From contig OX485808.1 of assembly GCA_950295325.1 (NCBI GenBank), positions 19,302,527 through 19,366,526 on the forward strand: DNA of 64,000 nucleotides. The letters are read 5' to 3'. Shown in pieces: positions 195 through 57,680 of this stretch. Origin of the DNA: Polytrichum commune (lineage: Eukaryota; Streptophyta; Polytrichopsida; Polytrichales; Polytrichaceae). The translations under genes and the position numbers were made by a program. The stretch's first letter is position 1; each line of letters opens with the position of its first letter. The notes under the pieces are model-generated. The model had not been told where the DNA came from, searched no databases, and saw nothing but the letters and a program-made list of their open reading frames with translations.

Positions 195-375
195 TTAACA
201 GCCATGGAGTGGGAGGCTTTCCGACAACGAGGACAAACCCAATTGCCAGAAGGAAGAGTCAAAAGGGGAGGTGTCAAACATGCCATGTGCTATCCACGTT
301 AACAATGGTCGCACAATAACATTGTTGCAGCTCCTTTCTTCTCTCCACACACATAACAAGGCAAACCCTGTGGTA
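195..375 (-). pseudogene. C-terminal PHD finger of pol, broken by two stops
   Basis: Reading the pol frame on past its stop gives the second half of a PHD zinc finger. The first half is CYVC...LLCDHC; after TAA-Arg-Gly-TAG come HMACLTPPLL, then LPSGNWVCPRCRK, and the frame ends at a TGA just after NGHD near 195. The spacing fits C4HC3, and TPPL and WVCPRC are typical PHD phrases. The position before HMAC, normally tryptophan in PHD fingers, is TAG, one base from TGG. The earlier TAA is one base from CAA. PHD fingers of this kind often bind the histone H3 tail; here that role is inferred from family only. Confidence is high that the two halves are one domain, because they are in one frame with correct ligand spacing. 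Confidence 0.8.
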
Positions 376-3300
376 CAACCGCCAACTCGGGATGCACAGA
401 GCCGTCGATGGGAAGGTGACATGGAGTACAATTCTTTGAATGCTCACGACATTCCCGTCCATCCTTGCCTTCAAGCAATAATATACCACTTGGTAAAACA
501 TCTTTTACCCGCAAAATTGTGCGCCCAGCTTTGACATCCAATGTCGTAGACGCCTCCCGTTGCAAGTAAACATAATCCCCCTTGATAAATATACGAACCT
601 GAGGTCGATAAGCTCCACTGCGGATCCGGGCATACCGTAATGTATCACGATGTTGAGCTATATTTAAGTTCTCCATGGCCATAGGCATGGCCTTTTGAAA
701 GAATTCTGCTCGGTCATGAAGACATTGAGCCCAAACATCTGGATCATCTAAGTCTACCACAGGAGCCAATTTCTCTCGCACAGAGCTAGGTAAAATTGGT
801 TCCCGTCCATACAAGAGTTGGTAAGAACTATAGGATGCCAAAGATGCTTGTCTGCTGAAACGGTAACCCATTGCTATCCATAGTAACATCAAGTCCCAAT
901 CGCGATGGTTGCCATGAAACAACCCATACTTCCGCAAACCGCGCTTGACAGTCTGAACAACTCGTTCAGCTAAGCCATCTGCCTCAGGGTGATCTCTGGA
1001 AATTGTTCGATGATCAATCAAAGCCTTAGTACACAAAGCCTCAAAAGATCCAAAAAATTCTCTCCCTTGATCCGTCAACACCTCTGCATGTGCTCCAAAC
1101 CGTGCCAAAACTCGATCAAGAAATGCCATAGCCGCCAATTCTGAGGAATTTTGGGGAAGAGCCACGAGTTCAATCCACTTACTAAAATGCTCCACCATCA
1201 CAAGTACATACTTTGCCCCACGTGGAGTGATAGTAAGCGGTCCGGCAAAGTCCAAAGACCAACGATATCCCAAGCCCATAATAGGTAAAGGCTGAAGTTG
1301 AGGTGATAAAGTATTAAAACTTGACCTGACCCGGTCACATACTTCACACCTAGAAACATAAGTGGCAACCTGTTGATACATACCAGTCGACCAATATTGG
1401 TTGCGCAACATAGAGTGTGTCCTTCGCACTCCAAAATGTCCAAGCTCCTCGTGGACTTGGCGCACTAAAGAAGCTCTTTGATCTGGCTTTGGAACGATGC
1501 ACCTTGTTCCGTTCGGCCACACACGAAATAACAAGCCGTTTGCCCAACGAAACCTTGTTATTCGATGGCTAACTCTATCTCGCTCCATAGCAGATAGTCC
1601 AAGAGGAAATATCCCTTGTTGAAGTTTGTGCAAGACCGCCTGGTCTTCCCACACATCACTAACAACGAGAGATTTATCAACCTCCTCATCTTGTTCTTTC
1701 ACAAGGATCTCAGCAGCCAATCCCGACATCATTGTGAGATATGTGGCAGCATGCCAACCCGACACTGCCTCACGATCACAATCTCCATGCCACCTGGCTC
1801 CAGTTAAATCCTCATCTGAAGGACTTGGATTGCGAGACAATCCGTCTGCATCCAAGTTGGCAATTCCTGCTCGGTGAACAACTTCAAAGTCATATTCTTG
1901 AAGTAACAATGCCCACCTAGCAAGTTTTCCGGTGAGTTTATCTGATTCCATAAGCCATTTTAAAGGCTGATGATCAGTCACCAAAGTAAATTTTTGCCCA
2001 TACAAATAAGGTCGAAAATGTGCAATGGCCCAAACGGCCGCCAAGGCCTCGCCTTCATAAGAAGAATAATTAGATTCAGCATTATTATTGCTCCTAGATG
2101 CATAAGCCACCACATATTCTTTTCCCTCTTCATCTTTTTGTGTCAATACCGCTCTCAATCCCATTGCACTCCAATCCGTGTGTAATTGAAAAGCTCTAGA
2201 CACATCCGGGCGTCGAAACACTAGCGCTGAACCGAGCCTCTGCTTCAATGTATCAAATGCATGTTGTTGTTCCCGACTCCAAATCCATGGTTGGTCTTTC
2301 CCCGTGAGAATGGTGAGAGATTTGGCAATCAAACTAAAGTTTTTGACAAACCTTCTATAATAATTTGCCAATCCTAGAAATGCCCGAAGTCGTGGTACAT
2401 CACTAGGTGCGGGAATTTTGTGCAAAGCATCCACCTTCGTCTGTTGCACACCAAGACCGCCAGGAACAATCATGTGGCCTAAATAGGGCAATCGATCATG
2501 GAAAAACTTACATTTGTCATGATGTAAACGGAGTCCCCACCGTTGTAGTCGTTTAAATACCGCTTGTAAATGTCTCACATGATCATGTGGACTATTACTA
2601 AAGATGATAACATCATCAATGTAATATCTAGCAAACGGTAAACCAGCCAATAATTGGTCCATCACCCGCTGAAATTCAGCTGGTGTATTCTTGAGACCAA
2701 ATGGCAAAAATTTCCAATAATAAAGTTGATCCTTGCCATCTTTATCAATTCCCCAAAATGCGGTCTTCACCCGATCACCCAACAACAAAGGTAATTGATG
2801 ATAACCAGACCTCAAATCCAGAGTGCTGAAGATTCTAGCAAATTCCAGTGCATCAAACAACTCCTCTGGCATCGGCATTGGATATCGATCCGACTTGGTC
2901 TTGCGGTTGACTGGACGATAATCACCACAAATCCGTTTTTCCGTCCAGTTGCCAAAGATATCTTTCTTTGAAGGCATAACCGTGGCACAAACATACTCTC
3001 CATTGGAGAGTTCAATCAATTCCGCTGCCAATAATTCTTGACATCGAGTTTGAACACCCAACCTTTTAGATGTACTAAGTCTGTACGGCCGTCTGAAAAT
3101 AGGATGGTCGTCCTCGAGTTGAATACGAACAAGTTTACCTTTATATCCTTCAAGATCATGAAGACTAAAGGCAAAACAATTACGGTAAGAGCGAATAAAT
3201 GCCCGTACCTTTCGTGCTTCGACACTAGTAAGTTTTGGCCCCACTTCAATTGGCCAATCGTCAAACTCCGTGGTTTCCTTCTTCATAGAAGGATTGCCAC

Positions 3301-3544
3301 TTGGTGCCAGCACAACATGTGATTGCTAGTCCGTGGAGAGGGCAATACCTTTGCCCCCATCATCTGTACTTGAATCCAAATGCGTATTCTCTCCACTACA
3401 ATCAGTTTGTGTAGCTAAATAGCTACCCACATATGAAGTGTTACCAAGAAATAGAAGTGGAAACATTTTGTGGGCCTCCAACTTTCCAAAATTTTGGGCC
3501 AAAGCCGAAAAAACACGTTGGGCTCGAAACTCTTCCGCAACCTG
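299..3544 (-). CDS. pol: reverse transcriptase, RNase H, integrase (same frame, after stops)
   Basis: After the TAA at 3545 the frame stays open to a TAG at 3328-3326, then runs from about 3325 to the TAA at 299 (1004 residues counted from the first codon at 3313). RT has the catalytic YYIDDVIIF near nt 2603-2630. RNase H has LHTDWSAMG near 2160-2190 and DHQPLKWL near 1957-1982. Integrase has an HHCC zinc domain (HEELGHFGVRRTHSML, later CEVCDRVR) at about 1320-1460, and the catalytic triad in SLDFAGPL (about 1245), LTDQGREF (about 1065) and EADGLAERVVQ (about 965). All catalytic residues I checked are present. The last residues LPCYVCGEKKGAATMLLCDHC are the first half of a PHD finger. The two stops upstream mean pol could be made only by readthrough, if at all; the context of the TAG is treated separately. 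Confidence 0.92.
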
Positions 3545-6500
3545 TTATTTCAAAGAAAATAATCCCTCAGTGTCATTGACCTCCATATGATCCTTGGATT
3601 GTGGCTCCATTGCCCCCTGACCATTGTACTCTGTCCTCAGAGGAAGCAATTGGTCATCCATATGTTGTTGAGCAGCAAGACAAATTCCAATTATCCACAC
3701 AATGCTATTGAGATCCATAGCTTGTCCCAATAGGAAACGTCTCTGACCTTCCTGAAGCCCATGAGCAGCCGTGGTGCCTGTATGAAAACCCATGGCGCGT
3801 TCCCGCTCATCTGCCGTAGGCTCATCATGAGTTTGGGATTTTGAATCCCAAACCATGTCTGGTCCACGAGATCGAAATGCGAAAGACCGTGGATATGTCA
3901 CAAAAGTAGGTAGTGCACTTCTCGGAATTCCCACCTTGTTAATTAATGCAAATGACAAGGTGTTATCCTTCGAAACTGCCACGGAAACACGATGATCATC
4001 CAAAATGTCATCCACCTTGCGATTCATAAGGCGGGGAAGGCGGGCGATCGCCGCTGAAAGCACCTGAGGTGATACCAAATTGGTCCAAAACCAACGAGGC
4101 CGATGAGCAAAGGATCCCAAGGATGCAGCATCCAGAAATGTTGGAGTACCCAGAATTTGGTTAATATACTCACCATCCTTCACCACTTTGTGCCGTGTAT
4201 CATCCAATAATGGCACATTTTCAAAAATGTACCCTGGCGGAGTTGATTGGTGGGTAAACCACCATTGTGTCAATCGCATCAAATCCGCGAACAAACTAGA
4301 CCTAGGATCATCCAAACCCTGGCCAGTTCCTGTCCGTGAATGGCCTTGACATGGCCATCCTGCAATAATTAAATCCACGTGGCCCAATCTTCTCAAATCC
4401 TCATCACTAATCATAGTGACATCTTGAGGAAGTTGACCACAACATCCAAGAATGGCAGTGGCTGACAATTGTGCGGGGTACCTCAACAACAATTGTTGAA
4501 TGTGGTGTCGGACGGCTCTGTTGGCTGCATATCCATTATCCACATGAATATATCGCCTAACTGTAATCCCAGCCTCCAACACTACCGCCAAACCTGTGCC
4601 AATGCCCCCAAAGATTTTTACAAGGACAATACCTTCAGGTGGTGGTTGCCAACGAATGGGTTGAGCAAAAGAAAATGAGGATGACGTTGGAGGTGTCTCT
4701 CCAAGCCCCAAATCCGCTACAATGTGTCGACAATGGTCGGATAACTCCTTAGGAGTACGCCATGGTGGAGGTGGATCCTTGAAATGTCGAGCATAAATTT
4801 GTAAAGATGGCAAAATTTGTTGTTCTGCTGCATTACAAGCGTAGTCCAATGTTTCCTCCAACAAAACTGGAGCACAAGGCAAATCCGCAACTGAACCGCT
4901 GCAACCAAATATTGCCTCTGCAACCATAGTCATAGAAGTAGCTGCAAATGCTACAGGAATAAATACCTTCCTGCCATCTCCAGAAGACCATCCCGGTCTA
5001 ATCCATGCCTCTTCAGTCCAATTATCCAAACCAAAGCCAAGTGGATAAAGAGCTTGCTGACCAACAAGTATATCATAGTTGGTAGCATTAGTAACAACAC
5101 ATTTCATTGACAAATGAGTGTAGGTAGGTCCTGCCCCCACATTAAAAATCAAACGTAGAGGTGCCTTGGTGTAGCCTGTTGCACGTTCAGTGCCCCCTAC
5201 TGAAGTCACAATTGTGAATGGACAAGGATCTAAGTTTGCTGGCGTCAATCCAAGACTGTCAAAAAGTCCTTTGCCAATCATAACCGGTTGAGCACCGGAA
5301 TCCATCATAACTCTCAGTGGTGTAGCACGAATAGTAGGCATATCCGCGCGTGAAACGACAAACAAAGATTTGTCGTTCATCAGCCGTACAACTCCAGGTT
5401 GCAAATTATGCCGCTCGTGAGCAGGCCTTGCAGAAATATCTGCAAGATATGCCGCTCCCGCTGCATAATGCAAAAATGACGTGTCCACTGCTGAAATTGT
5501 TGATGGAGGAATATCAATGTGCTTACCAAAAGCAATGATCGCCGCATCCGCAAGGCTCGCTCGTAAATTGGCTAAGTCCTCCACCTCCTCAGCCACAGGT
5601 ACGTCAACAACAGCTTGGGATACTTGAAGGGATGGCAAATCCGCCTTACTTTCCAACATTTTTCCAGCTAAATGGAAAACTCCAGCAGGCTTGAAATCCG
5701 GAGCCATCAACTCCGAACCCGAGAAAATTGGCATATGGAGAATTTTATATGCCAATGCCTGCGTAACATCCTTCGAGATGGAATCTCCATCTCTCAAAGG
5801 TACAGGGTTTTTAGCCCCAACAACAGTGGTGTCTACCAATCCAAATGAGAGAGGTAAACGTGCTTGACCAACTTGATCCGCTGGTCCGGCATGGCAAGGA
5901 TGTGACACCTCGTTGCTACCACCACTTGTAGAAGCCATCGCATTTGCCAATGTTTGTGATCGAGTAGAAGCCGCAGCCACCACCTCTCCAGATGCCCCAA
6001 ACATATACATGTCCGAACCCGAGGTGCCACCATCCGCATGCGGCTCAGAAATTTGAGCAAAAGATGCAGAAGATTTGAGCTTTTGTTCGAGCTCTGCCAC
6101 CTTAGCCTCAAGACTCTGCTCCCTTGGAAATTTGCCAGTGACATAACTGGCAGGCCGCATCTCAGGATGAAGTTGGAAACAATGATCCACATCGTGATTA
6201 ATGCCACCACAATGGTTACATTTCAATTGTCTCTTATTAGAATTGTCCCCTGCCTTTACCGGTTCTATCTTTTGTTTTAATTTTCCCAAAGGCTGAGTGT
6301 TCTTCTTCTTAGGACAATTGGGATCATTCTTCGAATGACCAGCTTCTCCACAACCCCAACAATGCAAAATCTTTTGCTCCTTAACGGGTTGAGTCTCAGC
6401 TAAACTACTAGTAGCTGTGACAATTCTTCTTGATTTTGTACTCTCTGTCATCCAAGATACCATGTTTGTGGCATCGTGTTGACAGAGAGCCCGATCACAT

Positions 6501-7168
6501 CTCTTAACCACGGCAAACGCTTGTGCAAGCGTAGCTCTGCCTTCGTAGTCGAGGATAATCCGAGGTGATGCCAACTCAAATAGCCGCTTGTCAATCTTAG
6601 ACAAAAAGATTTTGACAAGCTGACTCTCAGCAAAAACACCTCCCGATTCAACAGCAAAGCGTGCGAGTCGCGTATACATGGTCCGTGGAGTGTCATCCTT
6701 CTCTCGGCAGAAATCCTGAATGCGCTGCATATGGTCTCGCCGAAACCCACCATACTCCACCTCCAAATGTGCGACAAATTCAGCAAGGGGATTAAATGGA
6801 GGTGGTGGACCAATAGCCGTCAATGCTGCCTGTGTAGCACGTGCCATCCGTGAAAGGGTAGCCGTGCTACTGCCAGCCACTATTGGCCCAAACGCCAGTT
6901 CTTGGTCCTTAGACTCCTCCGGTGGATCCTCCTCCTTTAAGGTGGGTGGAGCTAAGGTGGCAATCGCCCCATCTTTAAGGGCTGAAATAAGCTCAACCCG
7001 GGCCTCCCAATACTGCTCCACCTCCCGAAGTTGTCGCTGATGACCCTCTATCCAGCGTTCGTAAGTTTGGAGTGCCTCATACTCCAAATGCTGAGGCAGA
7101 AGTTCAAAGGCATACCAATCATTGAAATTGGAAGACCTTTGACGTTTCTCCTTAATCCAGGTACGAAA
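3545..7168 (-). CDS. gag - aspartic protease - C5 cytosine DNA methyltransferase polyprotein section
   Basis: Continuous frame after the TGA at 7169. Positions are counted from the ATG at 7087 (1180 residues). Residues about 85-220 are a retrotransposon gag capsid-type helical region. Two zinc knuckles follow: CWGCGEAGHSKNDPNC (about nt 6316-6363) and CNHCGGINHDVDHC (about nt 6180-6222). The aspartic protease has VMMDSGAQPVMIGKG near nt 5270-5315, with DSG in place of the common DTG. From about residue 815 there is a C5-MTase domain in canonical motif order: motif I FGGIGTGL (nt about 4590-4620), motif IV with the catalytic cysteine GWPCQGHSRTG (about 4335-4365), motif VI FENVP (about 4210-4228), motif VIII HRPRWFW (about 4084-4104), and motif X RRFLLGQAMDLNSIVW (about 3695-3745). 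DRM enzymes are circularly permuted; this is not, and PRWFW recalls DNMT3. The section ends at TAA 3547-3545, after which the same frame continues to pol. Confidence 0.92.
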   Translation of the reverse strand, partial: FRTWIKEKRQRSSNFNDWYAFELLPQHLEYEALQTYERWIEGHQRQLREVEQYWEARVELISALKDGAIATLAPPTLKEEDPPEESKDQELAFGPIVAGSSTATLSRMARATQAALTAIGPPPPFNPLAEFVAHLEVEYGGFRRDHMQRIQDFCREKDDTPRTMYTRLARFAVESGGVFAESQLVKIFLSKIDKRLFELASPRIILDYEGRATLAQAFAVVKRCDRALCQHDATNMVSWMTESTKSRRIVTATSSLAETQPVKEQKILHCWGCGEAGHSKNDPNCPKKKNTQPLGKLKQKIEPVKAGDNSNKRQLKCNHCGGINHDVDHCFQLHPEMRPASYVTGKFPREQSLEAKVAELEQKLKSSASFAQISEPHADGGTSGSDMYMFGASGEVVAAASTRSQTLANAMASTSGGSNEVSHPCHAGPADQVGQARLPLSFGLVDTTVVGAKNPVPLRDGDSISKDVTQALAYKILHMPIFSGSELMAPDFKPAGVFHLAGKMLESKADLPSLQVSQAVVDVPVAEEVEDLANLRASLADAAIIAFGKHIDIPPSTISAVDTSFLHYAAGAAYLADISARPAHERHNLQPGVVRLMNDKSLFVVSRADMPTIRATPLRVMMDSGAQPVMIGKGLFDSLGLTPANLDPCPFTIVTSVGGTERATGYTKAPLRLIFNVGAGPTYTHLSMKCVVTNATNYDILVGQQALYPLGFGLDNWTEEAWIRPGWSSGDGRKVFIPVAFAATSMTMVAEAIFGCSGSVADLPCAPVLLEETLDYACNAAEQQILPSLQIYARHFKDPPPPWRTPKELSDHCRHIVADLGLGETPPTSSSFSFAQPIRWQPPPEGIVLVKIFGGIGTGLAVVLEAGITVRRYIHVDNGYAANRAVRHHIQQLLLRYPAQLSATAILGCCGQLPQDVTMISDEDLRRLGHVDLIIAGWPCQGHSRTGTGQGLDDPRSSLFADLMRLTQWWFTHQSTPPGYIFENVPLLDDTRHKVVKDGEYINQILGTPTFLDAASLGSFAHRPRWFWTNLVSPQVLSAAIARLPRLMNRKVDDILDDHRVSVAVSKDNTLSFALINKVGIPRSALPTFVTYPRSFAFRSRGPDMVWDSKSQTHDEPTADERERAMGFHTGTTAAHGLQEGQRRFLLGQAMDLNSIVWIIGICLAAQQHMDDQLLPLRTEYNGQGAMEPQSKDHMEVNDTEGLFSLK

Positions 7169-7423
7169 TCAGAGTTTCCAATCGGGCAAGGAAATGCCCC
7201 CAGCTCGACCTGAGAACCGATCACGCACTGAACCGTGGTGATTGTCGTCCATTTCGTTGAACGTGCCAACACTCCAAATCCGAAGCCTACTAGTAGTGTC
7301 CAACGCCGAAATAGGCTCAAAAGCCTCGTTGGTGTCTACCTCTGGCTCAAGATTTGTGGTATGCACGTCCTCCAAGTAATCTGGTGATGGAGATCGATAA
7401 TATCGGCTCCTAGTTTGCACCAT
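7169..7423 (-). CDS. gag N-terminus of the retrotransposon, ends at an in-frame TGA
   Basis: An 84-residue N-terminal piece starting MVQTRSRYYRSPSPDYLED, acidic and with a conserved-looking tryptophan-rich stretch near its end. It stops at TGA (minus strand, 7171-7169). The same frame continues without a shift into the long gag-protease-methyltransferase frame (next residues FRTWIKEK, after the stop), so this is the true start of gag and the TGA is a nonsense change, most simply CGA to TGA. The ATG at 7423 is chosen because it is the first in frame after the LTR and leader. I see no other gag start that would bypass the stop apart from the internal ATG at 7087. Confidence 0.8.
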   Translation of the reverse strand: MVQTRSRYYRSPSPDYLEDVHTTNLEPEVDTNEAFEPISALDTTSRLRIWSVGTFNEMDDNHHGSVRDRFSGRAGGISLPDWKL

Positions 7424-7587
7424 AAAATAATCACTTGAGTACCGGCAACTATCTACAAAGTAATGGCAACCTGCACCTGTTGCGGGCTATCTAAATGGCA
7501 ATCCCTTGCCAAATGCCAAGTGTTTATTTAGGCCCCCATAATTCCAAAATTGTGCCAAGGTTTGAGATTGGTAATTAAAATTAAAAA

Positions 7588-8013
7588 AATCAGCGTTGAA
7601 AATGTTAATTTCCAAGGTGATTATGGACTCCAATCAACAAACTAATTGTACCAATGGACTCCTAGGAAGATTTCACGCAAATTAGGCTCAAATTTCATTC
7701 CGTTCGGAGTTAATTTGCTCCCAAAAACAAAAATCAGCGTTGAAAATGTTAATTTCCAAGGTGATTATGGACTCCAATCAACAAACTAATTGCACCAATG
7801 GACTCCTAGGAAGATTTCACACAAATTAGGCTCAAATTTCACTCCGTTCAGAGTTAATTTGCTCCCAAAAACAAAAATCAGCGTTGAAATTAATAATTTC
7901 AGCAATGATTTTGAATTCCAATCAACAATCCAATTACACCATTGGATTCCTTGGCAAATTTCACACAAGATAGGCTCAAATTTCACTCCAATCGGAGCTA
8001 GTATGCCCCCAAA
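7588..8013. repeat. Tandem repeat, about 3 copies of 144 bp
   Basis: The phrase CAGCGTTGAAAATGTTAAT recurs at 7591 and 7735, and a diverged form at 7879, each 144 bp apart. The first two units are nearly identical over GATTATGGACTCCAATCAAC and the following segment; the third is more diverged. The array lies inside the proposed 5' LTR, so it may bear on LTR promoter strength, but nothing in the sequence proves that. Confidence 0.9.
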
Positions 8014-8099
8014 TTTGAACCTCAAAGTTTGTGAGAATGGGATGCCAAGTTTGAAAGGTGAAAGTAAAAATGTGAAATAAATAAATAAATAAAGGTAAG

Positions 8100-8335
8100 G
8101 GGGCTTACCTTAGGGGCCTGGCTGGCGCCGCCGCCGTGGGGCCCGGCTGACGTCCGCCCGCCCCCGGCCCGGAGAATAGGAGCTCCAGGAGTTCCAAGAG
8201 CTCCAGGAGTTCCAAGAGCTCCAAGAGGGTCCGGTGAGCTCCGGATCCGTCCGGAGCTCAACAAAAATTAAAAACAAATCGGATTTGAACTAAAAAAAAT
8301 TAAAACTAAATCGGATTTGATTAAAAAAAATTAAA
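8100..8335. repeat. GC-rich stretch with 18-bp repeats, then AT-rich 31-bp repeats
   Basis: 8100-8175 is strongly GC-rich (GCCGCCGCCG and CCCGGCCCGG), unlike its surroundings. 8178-8228 repeats GAGCTCCAGGAGTTCCAA about 2.5 times. 8273-8335 repeats AAATCGGATTTGA in an A-rich setting. No gene is seen. It is inside the proposed LTR of the retrotransposon. Confidence 0.7.
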
Positions 8336-8904
8336 CTTTGCTTCCACAATTTGCAAGCAAGAAAGATGTGACTTGAGATTCCATTTGGTCTCAAGATTCA
8401 ACCATCAACAATTCAAGAAAACACAAAGACACAACAAAAAAGATGTGGAGATTTTTCTCAAAATCTTCTTGAGGGTTGCAAGGAATTGCAAGCTAAGCTT
8501 TCATACACTTATATCACTCATTTGCTCCCACTACTGGGCCATTCTAGCTCAGAAATACAACCAAAAATGAAAAATAAGCCATTGTTGTCAAGTATGAGGG
8601 TTTCTCTCTCCAAGCTCAAGAAACTAAGAAGTCTTCTTAGAAAGCTTAAGAAACTCTGAAATTCACACACAAGAATCAAGCTATCTCTCACTCCACAAAG
8701 GGAGAATCCAAGAGTGCAAGTGATGGAGAAAGAATGCAAAGGCTTTACTCATGATCTACTACACCATAGCCATAAGATAGCAACAACAAGCTCTCTCTCT
8801 CTCTCAAAACACACTCACAAGACTTTACTTGACAACAATGGCAAGTCAAGATGCCTTCCTCTCCACATAACCCCAATCCTATGTGGATTTCATCCATGGA
8901 GTGG

Positions 8905-8990
8905 ATGAACAACTAACTAGGACTCCCAATGGAGTCCATCACTCATCCAAACACACATGGACTCCTAATGGAGTCCATTTACTCCTAATT
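8905..8990. repeat. Short inverted repeats built on GGACTCC / GGAGTCC
   Basis: GGACTCCCAATGGAGTCC and GGACTCCTAATGGAGTCC each form a perfect 7-bp stem with a 4-bp loop. They lie close to the proposed start of the 5' LTR (minus strand). Two near-identical hairpins about 50 bp apart could be binding sites in U3 or just repeat debris. Confidence 0.6.
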
Positions 8991-9037
8991 TGACGTGACT
9001 TAGCCCCCGATGTCAACTCACGTGACACAACCAAGGT

Positions 9038-9500
9038 TGCTGGACTTGTATTTCTGATGGGCTGTTGGATTGTATTTCTGCTGGTCCTAAGGCTAAGGGC
9101 AGCCAAGGCTGCTGGATTGTATTTCTACTGGGCCTACGGCCAGGGCAGCTGGGCTGTTGGATTGTATTTTTGCTGGGTCTAAGGCTAAGGGCAGCCAAGG
9201 CTGCTGGATTGTATTTCTGCTGGGCCTACAGGCAGGGCAGCTGGGCTGTTGGATTGTATTTATGCTGGGCCTAAGGCTAAGGGCAGCCAAGGCTACTGGA
9301 TTGTATTTCTGCTGGGCCTACGGCCAAGGCAACCAAGGTTGCTGGACTGTATTTCTGCGGGGCCTAAGCCAAGGAGCGGAGCTGCTGGACCGTATTTCTG
9401 TTGGGCCTAAGGCCAAGGCAGCTTAGCTGCTGGACCGTATTTCTGCTGGGCCAAGGCCAAGGAGCTCGGCTGCGGGACTGTACTTCGGTTGGGCTTAAGT
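9038..9500. repeat. Tandem array of about 9-10 units of 46 bp
   Basis: The phrase GGATTGTATTTCTGCTGGGC recurs every 45-46 bp from about 9066 to 9431, with later units reading GGACCGTATTTCTG. Long open frames on both strands here are products of the repeat and not genes. Position in the host repeat matches the shorter arrays at 10177-10483 and 12772-12895 in its relatives, though the unit sequences differ. Confidence 0.9.
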
Positions 9501-9738
9501 TAGTTCGTTAGCTTTAATTAGTTAGGCTACTATGGGGGGGGGTGTAGTTAGGCTAATCCCTTGCGGGATTGTTAGACCATACTAGATTCTTTCATGCCAT
9601 CTTGGTTCTTAGGTAAAGTTGGATTCATTAGGAAAGTAGAAGTGTGTGTGACTCTTGAATGTGTTGGTGGTTACCCATTGAGGTAAGTGTTTTTAAACAC
9701 TCGTACTCTTTGGTTGGAATAAATCACGTGCATAATTA

Positions 9739-9903
9739 ATGGAGAATGTGGAGGATCCTAGCAAGGACAAGATGAAGGAAGTAAAAATCAAGAAGTCTAG
9801 AGGGATCTCTTTAAGGGCATGTGTGGCCAAGGCCGCGGGTTGGACCCTTGAGAAATCAAATTCCACTACGAGCAACGATGCTCACAATAACAAAGCAAGT
9901 TGA
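9739..9903 (+). CDS. 54-residue conserved small frame of the TGTGAG repeat
   Basis: ATG at 9739 to TGA at 9901-9903. It is lysine-rich and contains SLRACVAKAAGWTLEKS. A second, oppositely oriented repeat copy at 12315-12503 encodes SLKACVAKAVGWALEKA in the same relative place between a hairpin and the 3' end of the repeat. The two differ at many bases yet keep the amino-acid pattern, which suggests past coding constraint. I do not recognise the family. No signal peptide or membrane segment is visible; the shared core could be a short amphipathic helix. It may be a relic of a longer protein or a captured fragment. Confidence 0.5.
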   Translation: MENVEDPSKDKMKEVKIKKSRGISLRACVAKAAGWTLEKSNSTTSNDAHNNKAS

Positions 9904-10034
9904 GTTGAGATGAAGTTAGTACCTAGGACATAAGAGCCATATAGCAATCCACATTATGGTATTAGGAATTGAATGTGATTCTCAAAGCCATCACCCGGAC
10001 TAGGACGCTTAAGGGTGGTGGGTTTGGCCTCACA

Positions 10035-11034
10035 CCTAGCCTAAGGTAACACCACGGGCTTCCCCCATTTATATTACCTTGTTCCCTCTCAAATCCCCTG
10101 ATTAAGTCCCTCCACGCTTAGATTAAGCCTCGGGACCACCGAAGTCACCTTGCTGGTTTGCTTAGGCAGCCAGCAATCTTACACTGAACCAACTTAGGAG
10201 TAGCCGTCTGCACACTGAACCAGCTTAGGCAGCAGTCTTCACACTGAACCAGCTTGGGCAGCAGTCTTCGCACTGAACCAGCTTAGGCATCAGTCTTCAC
10301 ACTGAACCAGCTTGGGGCAGCAGTCTTCCCACTGAACCAGCTTGGGGAGCAGTCTTCGCACTGAACCACCTTAGGCAGCAGTCTTCACACTGAACCAGCT
10401 TAAGGCAGCAGTCTTCACACTGAACCAGCTTGGGCAGCAGTCTTCGCACTGAACCAGCTTGGGGCAGCAGTCTTCACACTGATAAGTAATCTCCACAATG
10501 AATCCCCTAAGCCCTAACTAATTCCAATAACCTTCCCCAACTTCCTACCTAATTTCTCTAATTAATTGCACTAAATTCCCTAACCCCTACTTACCTAACT
10601 CACACATTCTTCTTAGCTCTAAGAGCTCCAAAATCCTAGAGAGGAGAGAGAGAGGGGGGGGAGGAGAAGAGCGAATGAAGAGAGAAAAGGAGAAGGAGGA
10701 GAGGGCACCCAAGGCCACAAGCCCCTTCACAATCCCCTACTTAGTAGGACCTAATCCTATCCACTAACCTTCACCCTTTAACCAACAAGAGCATGTTCTA
10801 ATTCTAACATTTTAATCAAAGGACCTTACCCTTGCTTCCTCAAACACTACTCACAACACTCCCTAATATCATTAAGCTTCTACTTAACCACTCAAAATGG
10901 CTTAAAGCCTAAAATATAAATCCACACCAAGCCTCATTCTTTTTATACTTTTGATTGTTTCAATAACACTCCAATTGCAATTCTAAATAAATTCTAAACA
11001 TAAAACAAATATGAGCGCTCATTTTGGGTTCATA
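10035..11034 (-). repeat. TGTGAG-type LTR-like repeat, minus orientation, partial
   Basis: Read on the minus strand from about 11033 it begins TGAACCCAAAATGAGCGCTC, matching the family start TGTGAGCCCAAAATGG at 14246, and continues with the shared AATATAAAAAGAATGAGGCTT-like stretch (10935-10955). It includes a purine-rich run (10638-10700) and the 29-bp array at 10177-10483. The expected 3' signature and peptide are not found at its left end, which abuts the 3' end of the plus-oriented copy at 10034, so the copy is truncated or rearranged. Confidence 0.65.
10177..10483. repeat. Tandem array of about ten 29-30 bp units
   Basis: Units read CACACTGAACCAGCTTAGGC plus AGCAGTCTT, with small changes (cttgggcag, cttggggcag). 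The array sits where a 34-bp array lies in the relative at 12183-14246, so arrays at this spot seem to arise again and again with different units. Confidence 0.92.
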
Positions 11035-19342: not shown

Positions 19343-20085
19343 TCATATTAATTTATTGAGTCTAGCGTAGCCGTACAACCTCCTAAATTCCTCATCTTGT
19401 GGGCTTAGAGGCCTATTGCCAATGGGGTTGGAGAGCACAAAGTCCGGGACAATTCCGGGGTGATAGGCAAGCCTCCTAATGTAGGGTCCTAGTTCACTCT
19501 CTAGAAAGTTGTCATTTCTATCGCTTTCCCAAGGATCCGGAAATATGCAATTGCCCGGGGGATTGAGAACACTCTTTGTGGGACTGTCGTCAATGAGGAG
19601 TGTGTTCTCTGGGGTGGGCCAACAACCATGGGGAACCCCCTCCAACGTAGGAACGCCCACGCAGAGGTTTTTCCTCAAGACCTTTAGGAATTGAGGCCCA
19701 TGACCTCCTCCGACCTTGGGTACAATCTTGCCACTACAGTCATAGAGGTCATCGCAGTGTTCTTGACCGAGAAGCAAGCATGGCATTGCAAGTTTTCGGA
19801 AAAGGAAACCGACGATGGCCTTCGTGTTGTCCATGAGCATAGAGCTCCAGATGATGACATGGGCGAAGCCAAGGACCTCACAAAGGAAGCTCCTCAAGCC
19901 GGGTCGGGCCCGTACAACCTTCTTATTAATGAGAGTATCGAACTGTCCGCCGTAATCCATGTCTTCTGGACTACGAAAGGGCCCCTTGGACCCACTATGC
20001 GAGATATGTTAGGAATGACAAAGTACCCCATTGAGGTCAAATATTATGAACGGTTTCCTCATGGGCCCACTTGGTCTTCCAGCGG
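19343..20085 (-). pseudogene. HAD-superfamily, NLI/FCP1-type phosphatase domain with one internal stop
   Basis: From about 20075 the minus frame reads MRKPFIIFDLNGVLCHS, then TAA, then continues in the same frame to MDYGGQF at 19960 and to the stop at 19343. Motif I is FDLNGVL (plant NLI-type proteins often have DLNG). RARPGLRSFL and VIIWSSM are motif II, QFLKVL carries the expected lysine region, and LLIDDSPTKS is motif IV. This is the catalytic fold of RNA polymerase II CTD-type phosphatases, which use the first aspartate as nucleophile. One nonsense codon separates motif I from the rest, so it is probably dead. It may have been captured by the surrounding repeated block. Confidence 0.75.
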
Positions 20086-50665: not shown

Positions 50666-53600
50666 ATGGAGCTGAGCCCCTCAAGGGAAAATTGGGAGGT
50701 TCAGATGTGCTTGAGTAATGCCAAAAGGGCTTGTACGAATGTGATGATGGAGGTTCTTCCATGCTGGAACGAACAACAGTGTCAGTATTTGAAGACAGAG
50801 CTCATGAAGGCCATGGACAACATTCCGGAACACATGCAGGTTGTCACAATTTTTACTATTTATAAAAACTCTTTGAAGTGAAAACATAAACCTAGGCGGT
50901 CTAGATGGTGACCCCTTAGGCTTTATGATTGATGCTTCTAATTAGTTCTAAGAATGACATTTGAGAGTGCAAATCTTTTCTAATTCAGACATAACTGATA
51001 TCAATTGATTCCTCTAGATACCCTCTTTTCAAGCCTGTTGCTCTTCTTTATGAAATAACAAAAGAAATCATCAACTCATTAACAGCTTTAGAATTAGTGA
51101 TTTGGCAAACAACTGCTCTAACCTAGGGGAGAGTTGCCCCCATGGCAGGTTCAGGTTGTTGCTGCGAAAGAGTTTGAGTGCGCTGTGTCAAGAGCTGACA
51201 ATCTCCTCAAACAGTGCAGTTACGAGAATTGGCTCCTCAAAGCTGTGGAGATGGGGGACAGTGGGGAGCATTTTGTGGAGGTGTTGCTGGACTTGCACTT
51301 GGCCACTGACTTGGTGCGGTGGGGCTCCCGGAAAATGGAACTCGAGGAGATGCTCAGTAGCTGGCAAAGATGGCTGGAAGCTTTTCAAGAGGAAGGGATA
51401 AATTTGCGTGTCTGCAGGGAGGATGATAAGAGGAGGTTGTTGGAAAGGGTGAACGAGGAAGTCAACAACTCCAACAAGCCAAAGGAAACCGAGAGGCTCC
51501 TTGCATGCCTTCTCCTGCACCGATACCGTCTAAACTTCTCATGGCACCCGCCCGAGCTCGAAACTTACGTCCGGAAATTCCAACTCAGCACACGGACGAA
51601 GAACGTTTCTTCGGATGGACCTATGGTGGTTGTCAAGTTCCCGTGGATGGGTAGGCAGTTTGCTCTAAAAATGCCGCTTCCTCGTGTTCAGCATGATAGT
51701 GATATGCTCAGCAACGAAGCCACCCTCCTTAAGAAATACGGCAATCCATACATTGTCGGATTTGTCGGCCACTGGGAGATTGTGGTGACACGGAATCATC
51801 GATGGGGCTTTCAGGAGTCGTCCTCCATTGTAAAGGTGGTGCCGCTTCTCTTGATGGAGAACATGCAAATTACTGTTAGAGAGCTCCTGGACAAGGTTCA
51901 AGGGAGGCGACACAATGACATGAATGAAAGAGGTAAGTAAACGTGATGAACTGGTTGCAATATTCCTTGTGTAAGGTGAGTTTTGTTGTTCTACCACTTT
52001 TGTTGGCCTTCCAAACTCAAATATATATTTGATGATTCTCAAATGTATGAGGAGTATGCAACAATTTCATTATTTAATGTTCGTATAAATTTCCTACACA
52101 ATGTTGAAGTACATGTACCACATTTAGGGCTAGACACCTGCCTCTTTTTGATTTGGGCTCCCACCACTATTACTGAGGTAAAGGAGGGGGTCAGAAAAAA
52201 CATGACCCCCATAGGTTTGTGGTTCAAAGTGGGTCTCTATAGACTAACTAGAACCTGTGGTTGGGAAAGGGAGCTCTAGGTTTATCTTCAGCGTGGTTTG
52301 ATAGCAATATATTTTTAAAATTATTGTTATTTAAAATTTTAAAATTATTTAATTTACTTTTAAAGATTTGTTTTGTCTGATTGAAATTGCCTTTAAAGTC
52401 CAAGAAGCCGAAAAGGCTAATGGGATTGAAAGTACATCATGATGGTTTTTAATCAACTAATTCTCTAGAGTGGTAGAGTGCGGCAACCTCTATGAAATAG
52501 AGGCTAATGCCAATTTGGTGGTTCAATTGAAAGAAAACAATTGTCAGCTTATTTTGAAAATAATAGACACAATTTTCTAGAATTACTTTCATTCACCTTA
52601 CGCTTTTGCTGGAATAAAGTAAACTATCACTCTACAAAAAATTATGTAGTGTTAATAATCCACGGTAAGGTACTACATAGAGGAAGGGTTCGCCGTCTAT
52701 TCCTAGTCGTCTTTAGTCATTGCAAAGAATATGGGTTAACATGAAATTGCAAGACTATGTACCAAGAACTTGGTCTATGTCCTTAATACATTTTTGAACC
52801 CCAATTCCACATAGAAGATGCACTTGTTGGAATTATGTCCAAATAAAGAAAGTTGGTACATGAAACAAAGTACTATGTCCAAGAATAACTTTGTGATTTG
52901 AAAATTTTGTGCAAAAGATATGAATGAATTTCACCAAGCATTTTCAAGAAGTGAGGAGGTTTGAAGAGAAAATGAACACATTTTTGGAGCTAAGAATTTT
53001 TTTTTGGAGTTGTGTTCAATTAAGAAATCCTAGACAATAAAACACAATACCACCTCCAACAAAACAAAAGTGCAATTTGAAGTTTTTATACAAAAGATAC
53101 CGACAAATACATAGAGGTGGACTACTGGGGCTTCATCTCTCAACTTTACATATCCACATGGATTGTGGACACCTCACGGAGAGGACTTATATATTAAAAA
53201 GCATTGGTAATGCAATGTGTAATGTGAACGCCTTATACCTATCCATTAGTTGTATGTGAATTGGCCGGAATTGTGAAAGAGTCATAGGAAAAGTGTCGGA
53301 ATTTTCAAAATTGTTATTTTAAAGCAATAATTTGATGAGGCCCAAGCCTAGGGCATTCTGGGAAATAAGAGCCCAACATTGAGGCATTTCTGGGAAGAAA
53401 ATAGTGACAAGACTTCTTAAGCAGGGGAAAGCCCTTCGGGTCAGAATTTATGAATATTTTGGGCCTGCCCCTCGGGATTCGCCTTCAGGCATGGCCTCAA
53501 TTTTCGTAAGTCCCTCCCCTAAGAGCTTTCCCGTATACTTACTGCATCAAGATAAGAGTGAGTGTTGCAGGGTTGCAACCTTTGCTTTCCTGTAGAGGAG

Positions 53601-54816
53601 TAAGAGCTACTGTAGTGGCAGACAGACTCTACCATGCTGAAGCTCGAACTTAAGTATAAAAGTTCAACAATTAAACATGATGATGGCAGATGTCGAGCTC
53701 ATACAGCTAATTAGAGGACGGAAAATGCGAGCTCTACCCTCTAACCTTCTCGGGCAGCTTAGCGATTGAGTATTGAATACTTTCTCTGAATTGAAGAGCT
53801 AACCATCATCTCTGAACTTGCTGTTTGAGAGCTAACCATCACAGCACTTGCTGGTAGTATCAAAGAATGCTGTCTGGTTGACCAATTAGAGTGTCGGAAG
53901 CTCTTCTCCACGTGGGCCTTAATAGGGTTTGACAATATTTTCCACGTGGATATAGATGGATGTGAATATGACCTGTGGCAAATTTCTTTAAAAAAAGAAA
54001 CGTTTTTTTATTGAACTAGACCTTACTGAAGCAAGGACAGAGCAGCACAATTTCTTTCTAGGATGTTTGCCTGTATGCTGCTCCTTGCCACCATGTTGCA
54101 CCTAATGAGATGAATTGACACCATGTGATTAATCAGATTTTCTTGCAATAAATTATTATTCCTCAGGTCTTTCTCCTACCGAGGTGATCAACCTAATGCT
54201 ACCAGTTGCAAGGGCATTGAACTACCTTCATGGTAAGGAAGTCGCTCACCGTGACTTGAAGCCTCGGAACATCATGTGCACACTCAAGTGCGACAATTTC
54301 AACGATCCTGAACTTCTCAACGAAGTAACGGTGAAGTTGATAGATTTTGGGGACGCTAAGGAATTAGGTGCCCATGGCAATATAATCAGAAAAGCTGGAA
54401 CAACTGGATACATGGCTCCTGAGGTGCACAATCTCACAGATGTTGCAGGTCACACTAATAGCAATGATGATATTGATCTCTTGAAGGCTGACATCTTCAG
54501 TTTTGGGATGGTCTTAGGAGAGGTCTTGACCAAGAGACCTCCTCTGGAAGCTTTGGGGAGCGGCAACCGGACTACCTTCTGGAATAAACTGAAGGGAGGG
54601 GAGAGACCCAACATTCCTGACCACTTTCCATTGGGTTTCATCACTCGAAGCTGTTGGGATGCAAATCCGAGACACCGGCCCCAAGCTGAGGACATCTGCA
54701 GGATGCTGTCCCATGCAAAACTCTTCCTTTCTGACAATGTATTTAGCCCAGATGAGCTGACAAAAGTTTTTTCCTTTGAGGATCATGATGGTGTAATCCG
54801 CAGAGCCTGCAATTAA
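50666..54816 (+). CDS. Plant protein kinase with helical (DUF1221-like) N-terminal region, three exons
   Basis: Exons 50666-50839, 51155-51932 and 54167-54816 join in frame to 533 residues; donors GTTGTC and GTAAGT, acceptors TTCAG and CTCAG. An alternative acceptor at 51148 adds two residues. Residues 1-170 are helical with a tryptophan-containing repeat-like pattern (LSNAKRACTNVMMEVLPCWN; DNLLKQCSYENWLLKAVEMG), resembling the DUF1221 region of plant kinases. The kinase domain has the lysine in RQFALKM (about 230), the helix C Glu in NEATLLKK, HRDLKPRN (Asp about 347), IDFGDAK (about 377), GYMAPEV and DIFSFGMVLGE. The usual glycine-rich loop is not evident; SSDGPMVVVKFPWMG stands in its place. 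A Ser/Thr or dual-specificity kinase is expected. Intron 2 (2.2 kb) holds repeat DNA. Confidence 0.85.
51933..54166 (+). other. Intron 2 of the kinase gene with repeat insertions
   Basis: Starts GTAAGTAAAC and ends TATTCCTCAG. 52300-52810 belongs to the repeat shared with 47330-47700. A 98-codon frame at 51983-52279 and others are not recognisable. Exon 3 begins in phase 1, matching exon 2. Confidence 0.7.
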
Positions 54817-56917: not shown

Positions 56918-57680
56918 ATGGAAATGGCCTCCCGAAATTCTGTGCAAGAGAAGGCGACCACCCATTTCCCCCGCAATTTGTCAAATCCTCAATCCAGTGT
57001 AGAGTGTGATGATGACATTCCACAAATCGCTCCTGCAACATTTCGTGCAATGCAGGCTGATCTTATAATTTCGTTGAGAGAGAGAGTTCAAAATCCTCCT
57101 CCAGGTGCATTTGCTATGGACGACTTGGTGTGGACCAACCACGTTACTCAAGGTTAAGGGATACAGAAAACCTCTAAGCTAGTTGTAATATTGTGGGAGA
57201 GACTTGATGATTTCATTAAAGACGAGCAACAACATCCTCAATTTCCCTGCAATTTCACCAAGGAAATCGTGCGTGTTAACTTGCCAAACTCCTTGCGAAC
57301 ACCTCGTGCACACAGTCCTGCAATTGTACTGAGGTTTGATCTACTGCCTACTCTAAATTTGAAACCACACACTATTCATGTTCTGCTTGTCATAATGTGC
57401 TCAGCAGCCAAATATCAAACTTATGCATTTCATTCTACACTCCACAATTTGCAGTACATTGTCCTTACTGTTCATGAGGGTGTATGGATTCCATGTCCTG
57501 CAATTATGTACATATAAAATGATACATATTCAATACATGTGTGCTTCTATTGCCATTGCAGATACATATGCAATTTTGGCCCTGAAGATAGGAGTGATAT
57601 TGTTGTGCATGATATGCAAGCTCTACTGAAATCTACACAAAAAAATAAAAGCAGAAGATGTTGCAGAAGAAAAAGCGAGG
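56918..57680 (+). pseudogene. N-terminal exons of the second MULE transposase gene, with stop and frameshift
   Basis: ATG at 56918 opens MEMASRNSVQEKATTHFPRN. A TAA at 57155-57157 interrupts; the same frame continues ILWERLDDFIKDEQQHPQFP to a donor at 57334. An acceptor at 57561 (ATTGCAG) gives a phase-2 join to YICNFGPEDRSDIVVHDMQA. That exon frame then differs by one base from the main transposase exon near 57658-57690, in an A-rich tract, so a base seems lost. The main downstream exons are intact, so the damage is confined to the N-terminus. The ATG at 57658 may serve as an alternative start. Confidence 0.6.

What the first reader, a model, noticed from the sequence alone, without database searches (positions are those of the whole stretch)
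3545..7423. LTR retrotransposon encoding a complete C5 DNA methyltransferase between protease and RT
Seen: gag zinc knuckles, DSG protease, then methyltransferase motifs I, IV (PCQ), VI (ENV), VIII and X in canonical order, all in one frame with pol. The catalytic Cys and Glu are kept, while stops elsewhere break the frame. Known: I recall that cytosine methyltransferases have been reported in retrotransposons of a charophyte alga and of dinoflagellates; I know of no well described land-plant case. Inference: the element could write methylation on its own or related DNA, either to survive host silencing or to limit itself.
Basis: partly seen in the sequence, partly recalled or inferred. Interest (0 to 1): 0.95.

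Follow-up and report, generated by a model that had tools for sequence, protein, structure and literature searches.

The report
Moss jumping gene carrying DNA methylase
A large family of jumping genes in what is probably a moss genome carries its own DNA-methylating enzyme, kept by selection about as strictly as its copying enzyme, which extends to land plants a kind of element previously described in algae.

Summary
The window holds a decayed copy of a Ty3/Gypsy-type element: Gag zinc knuckles, aspartic protease, an unrearranged DNMT3-type methyltransferase, then RT, RNase H, DDE integrase and a PHD finger. It is not a one-off: the 408-Mb genome holds at least 87 such matches, the window's included, and relatives occur in liverworts, Sphagnum, Klebsormidium and green algae. 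New points: (1) one 'stop' is conserved in 30 of 30 fetched copies and in another species, UAG-CAA-YCA, the viral type I readthrough context, so the methyltransferase lies on the Gag side of a probably leaky stop. (2) The repeats are split (A-coding-B-GC-A-B), yet ends are TG..CA with 4-bp target duplications. (3) Shared variants show purifying selection on the methyltransferase (omega 0.33) like RT (0.35); private variants are neutral. Closest known: KnitGypsy-Dnmt3 (2018). I rate it a new variant of a known kind. Self-methylation of new copies is the likeliest role, unproven.

The parts
8588..9027 (-). A1, left member of the split direct repeat; element 5' end TGTCACGTGAG at 9027
   Evidence: 97.7% identical over 440 columns to A2, which lies left of the window (L031 6238-6674)
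7424..8587 (-). leader between A1 and gag, with three tandem 144-bp repeats at 7585-8016
7169..7423 (-). start of gag (ATG at 7423), ended in this copy by a stop at 7171-7169
   Evidence: L117 gag begins with a similar MVNTRSRYYRSPSPDY
6206..6364 (-). two CCHC-like zinc knuckles of Gag
   Evidence: sequence; weak Pfam zinc-finger hits
5048..5332 (-). aspartic protease, DSGAQP
   Evidence: Pfam Asp_protease_2 and gag-asp_proteas, below curated cut-off
3662..4636 (-). DNMT3-type C5 cytosine methyltransferase; catalytic Cys codon at 4351-4349, motif VI Glu at 4222-4220
   Evidence: Pfam PF00145 5.5e-11; PDB DNMT3 2.2e-8; model pLDDT 88.8; the 50 Foldseek rows shown are all DNMT3A/3B/3C entries
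3545..3547 (-). stop private to this copy (1 of 30)
3320..3328 (-). conserved stop with readthrough context UAG CAA UCA between ORF1 (gag-PR-MTase) and ORF2
   Evidence: 30 of 30 copies UAG CAA YCA; same in L117 from another species; motif CARYYA in PMC5382211
1892..2935 (-). reverse transcriptase and RNase H
   Evidence: Pfam RVT_1 5.8e-29, RT_RNaseH 1e-37
986..1486 (-). integrase: H2C2 zinc binding plus DDE core
   Evidence: Pfam 1.8e-15 and 7e-13
224..358 (-). PHD finger after integrase, with two stops in this copy
   Evidence: Pfam PHD 4e-12 with X at the two stops; open in copy L003 and in L117
182..184 (-). end of ORF2; B1, A2 and B2 follow to the left of the window

Best explanation
A recently active Ty3/Gypsy-like retrotransposon family with split direct repeats that captured a DNMT3-type methyltransferase long ago. 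Shown: coding order gag-PR-DNMT3-UAG-RT-RH-INT-PHD, a conserved in-frame UAG-CAR-YYA stop, 4-bp target duplications with TG..CA ends, near-identical repeats in several copies, and purifying selection on the methyltransferase like that on RT. Inferred: most ribosomes stop at the UAG and make Gag-PR-DNMT3; a minority read through and add RT-RH-INT-PHD, so the methyltransferase is made at Gag level and packaged in quantity. It most likely methylates the element's own new DNA before or at integration, so that the copy arrives marked and is tolerated or held silent instead of being sensed as foreign or harming the host. The PHD finger probably directs integration by reading histone H3.
For: 87 of 87 scored matches cover at least 486 of 493 query residues (667 candidates, the rest unscored); 34 of the 87 have no stop in the matched part by my count of the table. 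Variants in 22 of 30 fetched copies: MTase private omega 1.03, shared 0.33 (Fisher p 0.003); RT 1.11 and 0.35 (p 0.005); tail after the MTase 1.55 and 1.99 (p 1.0). Between species MTase 71% identical, gag/PR 54%, tail 43%, RT part 86%. UAG-CAA-YCA in 30 of 30, and in L117. Target duplications perfect in 8 of 12 copies examined, one mismatch in 3, one 3' end not found. A1/A2 identity 99.3-99.8% in 7 of 9 copies compared. Motif IV Cys kept in 30 of 30.
Against: No activity, expression or readthrough was measured. 53 of the 87 matches have a stop in the matched part. The related K. nitens domain showed no DNA methylation in yeast (called inconclusive by the authors, PMC5890265). CG is not depleted relative to the rest of the window, so there is no CG-specific scar. 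Private C-to-T changes are high in CG, CHG and CHH alike, which fits host methylation at least as well. Selection shows that the domain is needed, not what its substrate is. Among relatives P0031 has lost the catalytic Cys and the Klebsormidium group has EHV for ENV. Many copies are young and related, so 30 of 30 is not 30 independent events.
Confidence: 0.5

Rival explanations
1. The methyltransferase acts mainly in trans on host or rival-element DNA, for example silencing competitors or host defence loci, and own-copy methylation is incidental.
For: De novo DNMT3s are not very sequence-selective (recalled); the Gag-level dose inferred from the stop context would allow trans action.
Against: Selection acts through replicating lineages, which is easiest to explain by a cis benefit (inference). 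No methylome was available.
Confidence: 0.15
2. The enzyme methylates the element's RNA (packaging, stability) instead of DNA.
For: It is fused to Gag, the RNA-binding part of the polyprotein; de Mendoza et al. raise RNA methylation for the LINE type.
Against: The 50 structural matches shown are all DNMT3 entries, and DNMT3A groups with it in the tree. No RNA-methylase family was compared directly.
Confidence: 0.12
3. The domain is catalytically idle and serves as a structural or nucleic-acid-binding module.
For: In some relatives catalytic motifs drift: Tyr for Cys in P0031, EHV for ENV in the Klebsormidium group (6 of 52 rows have His there by a loose pattern).
Against: Cys 30 of 30 and ENV/ENI 28 of 30 in this genome; motif IV, VI and VIII residues invariant in nine members that I chose, none of the Klebsormidium group among them.
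Confidence: 0.13
4. One-off insertion, pseudogene or assembly chimera.
For: The window copy has private stops.
Against: 87 matches on seven contigs, relatives in other species, purifying selection.
Confidence: 0.01

Closest known systems
KnitGypsy-Dnmt3 of Klebsormidium nitens (de Mendoza et al. 2018, PMC5890265; read: abstract, introduction, results up to the yeast assay, discussion; supplements and figures not seen)
   Same: Gypsy domains plus an unrearranged DNMT3 in Pol, repeats arranged as in DIRS, purifying selection. K. nitens protein P0041 has the same MTase-RT-INT order and lies on the same side of the RT tree (100/99).
   Different: In P0041 (a partial gene model, which may have been spliced) no stop separates MTase and RT, while here a conserved UAG does; motif VI is EHV in P0041, ENV here; the host here is probably a moss. 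The paper's main text holds neither 'PHD' nor 'moss'.
RT-MTase-INT-PHD elements of green-algal type (P0027-P0030, P0034, P0039 and others; the one named source is Monoraphidium neglectum for P0046)
   Same: Related RT, DNMT3-like domain, integrase and PHD finger.
   Different: The methyltransferase lies after RNase H, not before RT; some have a further C-terminal domain. PMC6338049 mentions methylase-encoding Gypsy and DIRS elements in green algae (passage); I saw no description of this architecture.
SymbioDIRS-Dnmt3 and SymbioLINE-Dnmt of dinoflagellates (PMC5890265)
   Same: Retrotransposons with DNMT domains; SymbioDIRS domains methylate CG de novo in yeast.
   Different: Tyrosine recombinase or LINE machinery; here a DDE integrase and target duplications.
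Human DNMT3A/3B catalytic domain
   Same: Motif order and fold; best PDB matches by sequence and structure.
   Different: About 22% identity; longer stretch between motifs VIII and X; none of DNMT3's companion domains (ADD, PWWP; recalled) was reported by Pfam.

Membership tests
KnitGypsy-Dnmt3-like elements | DNMT3 domain inside Gypsy-type coding region, order MTase-RT-INT | tested here: met
KnitGypsy-Dnmt3-like elements | DIRS-like repeat arrangement A-coding-B-A-B | tested here: met
   window copy, L003 and 7 of 10 further copies; 2 of 10 have A-coding-B only, 1 of 10 3' end not found
KnitGypsy-Dnmt3-like elements | RT and MTase trees place it with the K. nitens element | tested here: met
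   RT 100/99; in the MTase tree the two domain orders separate at 98, but with outgroups the MTase-first side is not one clade
KnitGypsy-Dnmt3-like elements | MTase and RT in one uninterrupted Pol frame | tested here: not met
   conserved UAG between them, 30 of 30 copies
Ty3/Gypsy LTR retrotransposon | RT-RNase H-integrase order with DDE core | tested here: met
Ty3/Gypsy LTR retrotransposon | identical long terminal repeats at both ends | tested here: not met
   5' end has A, 3' end has A-B, with a further B before it
Ty3/Gypsy LTR retrotransposon | short target-site duplication, TG..CA ends | tested here: met
   4 bp, perfect in 8 of 12, one mismatch in 3
DIRS order | tyrosine recombinase and no target duplication | tested here: not met
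   DDE integrase; target duplications
DNMT3 | C5-MTase motifs I-IV-VI-VIII-X in canonical order, not DRM-rearranged | tested here: met
DNMT3 | groups with DNMT3 in a tree holding host plant DNMT3, DRM, CMT and DNMT1 | tested here: inconclusive
   with DNMT3A, M.HhaI and six database proteins it joins DNMT3A and P0150 (100/97), but no plant host enzymes could be added
DNMT3 | methylates DNA de novo | not testable with these tools
   needs an assay
Type I leaky stop | UAG followed by CARYYA, downstream frame in phase | tested here: met
Type I leaky stop | measured readthrough | not testable with these tools
   needs a dual reporter or ribosome profiling

The most novel reading that the evidence does not exclude
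A single ancient capture, before chlorophytes and streptophytes parted, founded a lineage of split-repeat Gypsy elements with DNMT3 and a PHD histone reader. It has lived on for most of green-plant history, including in land plants, by writing its own methylation at Gag dose. In bryophytes a viral-type leaky stop was put between the writer and the polymerase, and in chlorophytes the domain moved behind RNase H.
Probability: 0.3. Interest if true: 0.82.

Novelty: new variant of a known kind. Interest (0 to 1): 0.64.

Why it matters
Why an element would carry the mark that silences it is an open question that de Mendoza et al. (2018) raised for two algal groups. Here the domain is under constraint like that on RT, in young insertions. 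Related element-derived proteins sit among the hypothetical proteins of Marchantia polymorpha, a plant with laboratory genetics, so the question becomes testable. [quoted passage not shown] bryophytes contradict the broad form of that statement, while tracheophytes were not tested here. It also shows a Gypsy-type integrase working with DIRS-type split repeats.

Tried and rejected
Ordinary LTRs: rejected, because the repeats are A-coding-B-A-B. DIRS tyrosine-recombinase element: rejected, because it has a DDE integrase and 4-bp duplications. All stops as decay: rejected for the UAG at 3328-3326, kept for the others. CG depletion as a self-methylation scar: not found; element coding part 0.69, other 7-kb stretches of the window 0.35-0.66, three other copies 0.62-0.64. 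Viral contigs: the plain protein scan found nothing; the profile scan returned 63 loci at 23-46% identity, not examined. L117's overlapping ends suggest a circle, but repeats alone can close an assembly graph, so I claim no circular DNA.

Not achieved: a tree with host DNMT3, DRM, CMT and MET1, because the genome search for PF00145 did not complete; the window genome's name; expression; methylome. Host assignment rests on a kinase-like gene in the window whose best named relative is from the moss Ceratodon purpureus (32% identity, E 5.8e-44; unnamed proteins score higher) and on seven large contigs. Moss is likely, not proven.

Weak points of the selection test: 22 of 30 fetched copies were used (5 of the divergent window-like group and 3 with disrupted downstream sequence dropped). 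The 30 are the top scorers of 87. Expected ratios use a simple mutation spectrum.
Full report
CHECK. The finding lies on the minus strand. Translation from 7423 downwards gives one frame with gag, protease, methyltransferase, RT, RNase H, integrase and a PHD finger. Pfam calls DNA_methylase at 5.5e-11, above the curated cut-off, on ORF 7087-3548, and RT, RNase H and integrase on ORF 3313-302. The nearest solved structures by sequence are DNMT3C, 3A and 3B (best 2.2e-8). An AlphaFold2 model of window 4768-3638 (42 rows; pLDDT 88.8, pTM 0.90) has only DNMT3A/3B/3C entries, some with DNMT3L, among the 50 Foldseek rows shown (best 3.3e-18, target-normalised TM 0.80, 22% identity). The PHD finger scores 4e-12 with X at its two stops and is open in copy L003.

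FAMILY IN THE GENOME. The genome has 407.8 Mb in 64 contigs. Of 667 candidates 87 were scored; all 87 match 486 or more of 493 residues at 88% identity or better, one being the window itself. By my count 34 of 87 have no stop in the matched part and 53 have at least one. Among 30 fetched copies nucleotide identity in the 1479-bp part is 91.8-99.8% (median 97.7%). Motif IV Cys is kept in 30 of 30, motif VI ENV or ENI in 28 of 30 (FKNV in two), motif VIII AHRPR in 28 of 30.

A CONSERVED STOP. In 30 of 30 copies the same in-frame stop follows the methyltransferase, 21 of them with exactly GAC TAG CAA TCA CAG GCT; the six bases after TAG are CAATCA in 29 and CAACCA in one. That is UAG-CAR-YYA, the type I readthrough context of tobamoviruses and others (PMC5382211, passages read). 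The RT frame continues in phase. L117, from another species, has TAG CAA TCA at the same place with the downstream frame in phase and open. By eye, related proteins end at a comparable place: P0002 to P0009, P0011, P0012 and P0014 to P0018, out of 26 tails printed. In the K. nitens protein P0041 (a partial gene model that may have been spliced) and in P0025, P0031, P0036, P0040, P0045, P0048 and P0052 methyltransferase and RT are in one frame. So the methyltransferase is on the Gag side of the stop in this lineage. Readthrough itself is inferred.

ENDS. The repeats are A1-coding-B1-NN-A2-B2 with A about 440 bp and B about 110 bp. For the window copy B1, A2 and B2 lie left of the window. I chose 10 more copies out of 30: seven have B1-GC-A2-B2, two (L015, L019) have A-coding-B only, and one (L029) had no 3' end in the stretch. 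Element ends are TGTCAC and ACGACA. Counting these 10, the window copy and L003, 4-bp target duplications are perfect in 8 of 12 (L004, L007, L009, L015, L019, L021, L022, L024), have one mismatch in 3 (L013, window, L003), and cannot be judged in 1. The NN spacer is GC in the seven, AC in the window copy and GT in L003. The junction ACACGACA-GC-TGTCACG recurs in L117. So the internal B1-A2 is an image of the two ends joined, as in DIRS-type split repeats, but integration is by a DDE enzyme. The A2-B2 joint is at the same place in the seven and in the window copy, and elsewhere in L003. A1/A2 identity is 99.3-99.8% in seven copies, 98.3% in L003 and 97.7% in the window copy: recent insertions. 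The short form could be a direct insertion of an A-coding-B molecule or a B1 x B2 deletion; I cannot tell.

SELECTION. In 22 of 30 copies I split variable sites into private and shared and compared nonsynonymous to synonymous counts with the expectation from the mutation spectrum. Methyltransferase: private 60:21, omega 1.03; shared 16:20, omega 0.33; Fisher p 0.003. RT: private 64:23, omega 1.11; shared 12:16, omega 0.35; p 0.005. The tail between methyltransferase and UAG: 1.55 and 1.99, no sign of constraint. Gag/PR: 0.73 and 0.57. Linker: 0.72 and 0.46 on few sites. Plain pairwise NG86 over 30 copies gives 0.32 for the methyltransferase. L117 against L021 has 71% identity in the methyltransferase, 54% in gag/PR, 53% in the linker, 43% in the tail and 86% in the RT part, with synonymous sites saturated or nearly so. 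Single copies decay neutrally; replicating lineages keep the methyltransferase as they keep RT.

MUTATION PATTERN. Private transitions per site are 0.183 at CG, 0.184 at CHG, 0.143 at CHH and 0.021 at A/T. This fits dense methylation of silent copies in every context, which host enzymes could supply. CG observed/expected is not low for the element compared with its surroundings.

RELATIVES. Searching residues 690-1150 gave 52 proteins; a nine-row profile gave 110 with E up to 1, the weakest of them ordinary bacterial methylases; both searches scored only the 8,000 or so candidates sharing most words. Named sources include Marchantia polymorpha, Calypogeia fissa, Riccia sorocarpa, Sphagnum troendelagicum, Klebsormidium nitens and Monoraphidium neglectum. 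The Marchantia proteins show zinc knuckles and a DSGAQP protease in front of the methyltransferase (by eye), so they are element-derived. The Sphagnum and Riccia proteins were not checked for this. Where RT and methyltransferase share a protein, two orders exist: methyltransferase first (8 proteins) and RT first (13). The RT tree separates the orders at 100/99 (22 rows including the window) and the methyltransferase tree at 98 by SH-aLRT in a quick search (46 rows). With DNMT3A, M.HhaI and six database proteins as outgroups, all element domains form one group at 80/93 (not starred), next to DNMT3A and P0150 (100/97), with the RT-first group arising among the methyltransferase-first rows (rows without an RT in the same protein were labelled by kinship or by their integrase, and P0150 and DNMT3A are flagged as long). 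This favours one capture but does not prove it, since no plant host DNMT3 was in the tree.

LITERATURE. Eight paper searches on the element and one on readthrough listed one describing work, de Mendoza et al. 2018. A 2025 survey repeats 'streptophytes and dinoflagellates' (PMC12344493, passages). PMC6338049 writes that such transposons are not present in land plants, such as tracheophytes (passages). In passages of a liverwort genome paper (PMC9985172) Gypsy bursts appear and the words methyltransferase and DNMT do not occur. Passages of a moss DNMT3 paper (PMC6453930) and of a Marchantia methylome paper (PMC5784723) did not mention such elements. The library holds open-licence papers only, so a subscription paper could exist.

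MECHANISM. Shown: architecture, conserved UAG context, split repeats with target duplications, constraint on the domain, intact catalytic motifs. Inferred: readthrough, Gag-level dose, methylation of new element DNA, PHD-guided integration. I give 0.5 to the full chain; the architecture and the constraint are much surer.

Noticed in passing
P0027, P0028, P0030, P0032, P0052 C-terminal parts: Some green-algal-type elements carry, after the PHD finger, a tudor-like stretch and what looks like a second, non-C5 methyltransferase-type domain (a DPF...SPPF pattern in P0027, degenerate in others). Pfam reported nothing there for P0027, P0028, P0030 and P0052; the reading is by eye.
   Followed up: partly
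P0041 and P0031 methyltransferase: The Klebsormidium-type domains have EHV where ENV is expected, and P0031 has Tyr for the catalytic Cys. This might bear on the negative yeast assay of 2018.
   Followed up: no
L117 (CADCWO010000201.1): A contig titled as a Synechococcales cyanobacterium MAG is a plant-type retrotransposon; P0054 (an Obscuribacterales MAG protein) is probably the same kind of misbinning.
   Followed up: partly
window 51134-54816 (+): Kinase-like host gene in at least two pieces; best named relative is in the moss Ceratodon purpureus.
   Followed up: partly
window 57658-60153 (+): ORFs that look by eye like a MULE/SWIM-type transposase (DAMFGTS, CDCPVAKEGMICKH); no Pfam hit at 0.01.
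   Followed up: partly
window 9058-10491: Arrays of 92-bp and 29-bp tandem repeats beside the element's 5' end.
   Followed up: no
window 19346-19960 (-): NLI-interacting-factor-like phosphatase fragment (Pfam NIF 1.3e-10).
   Followed up: no
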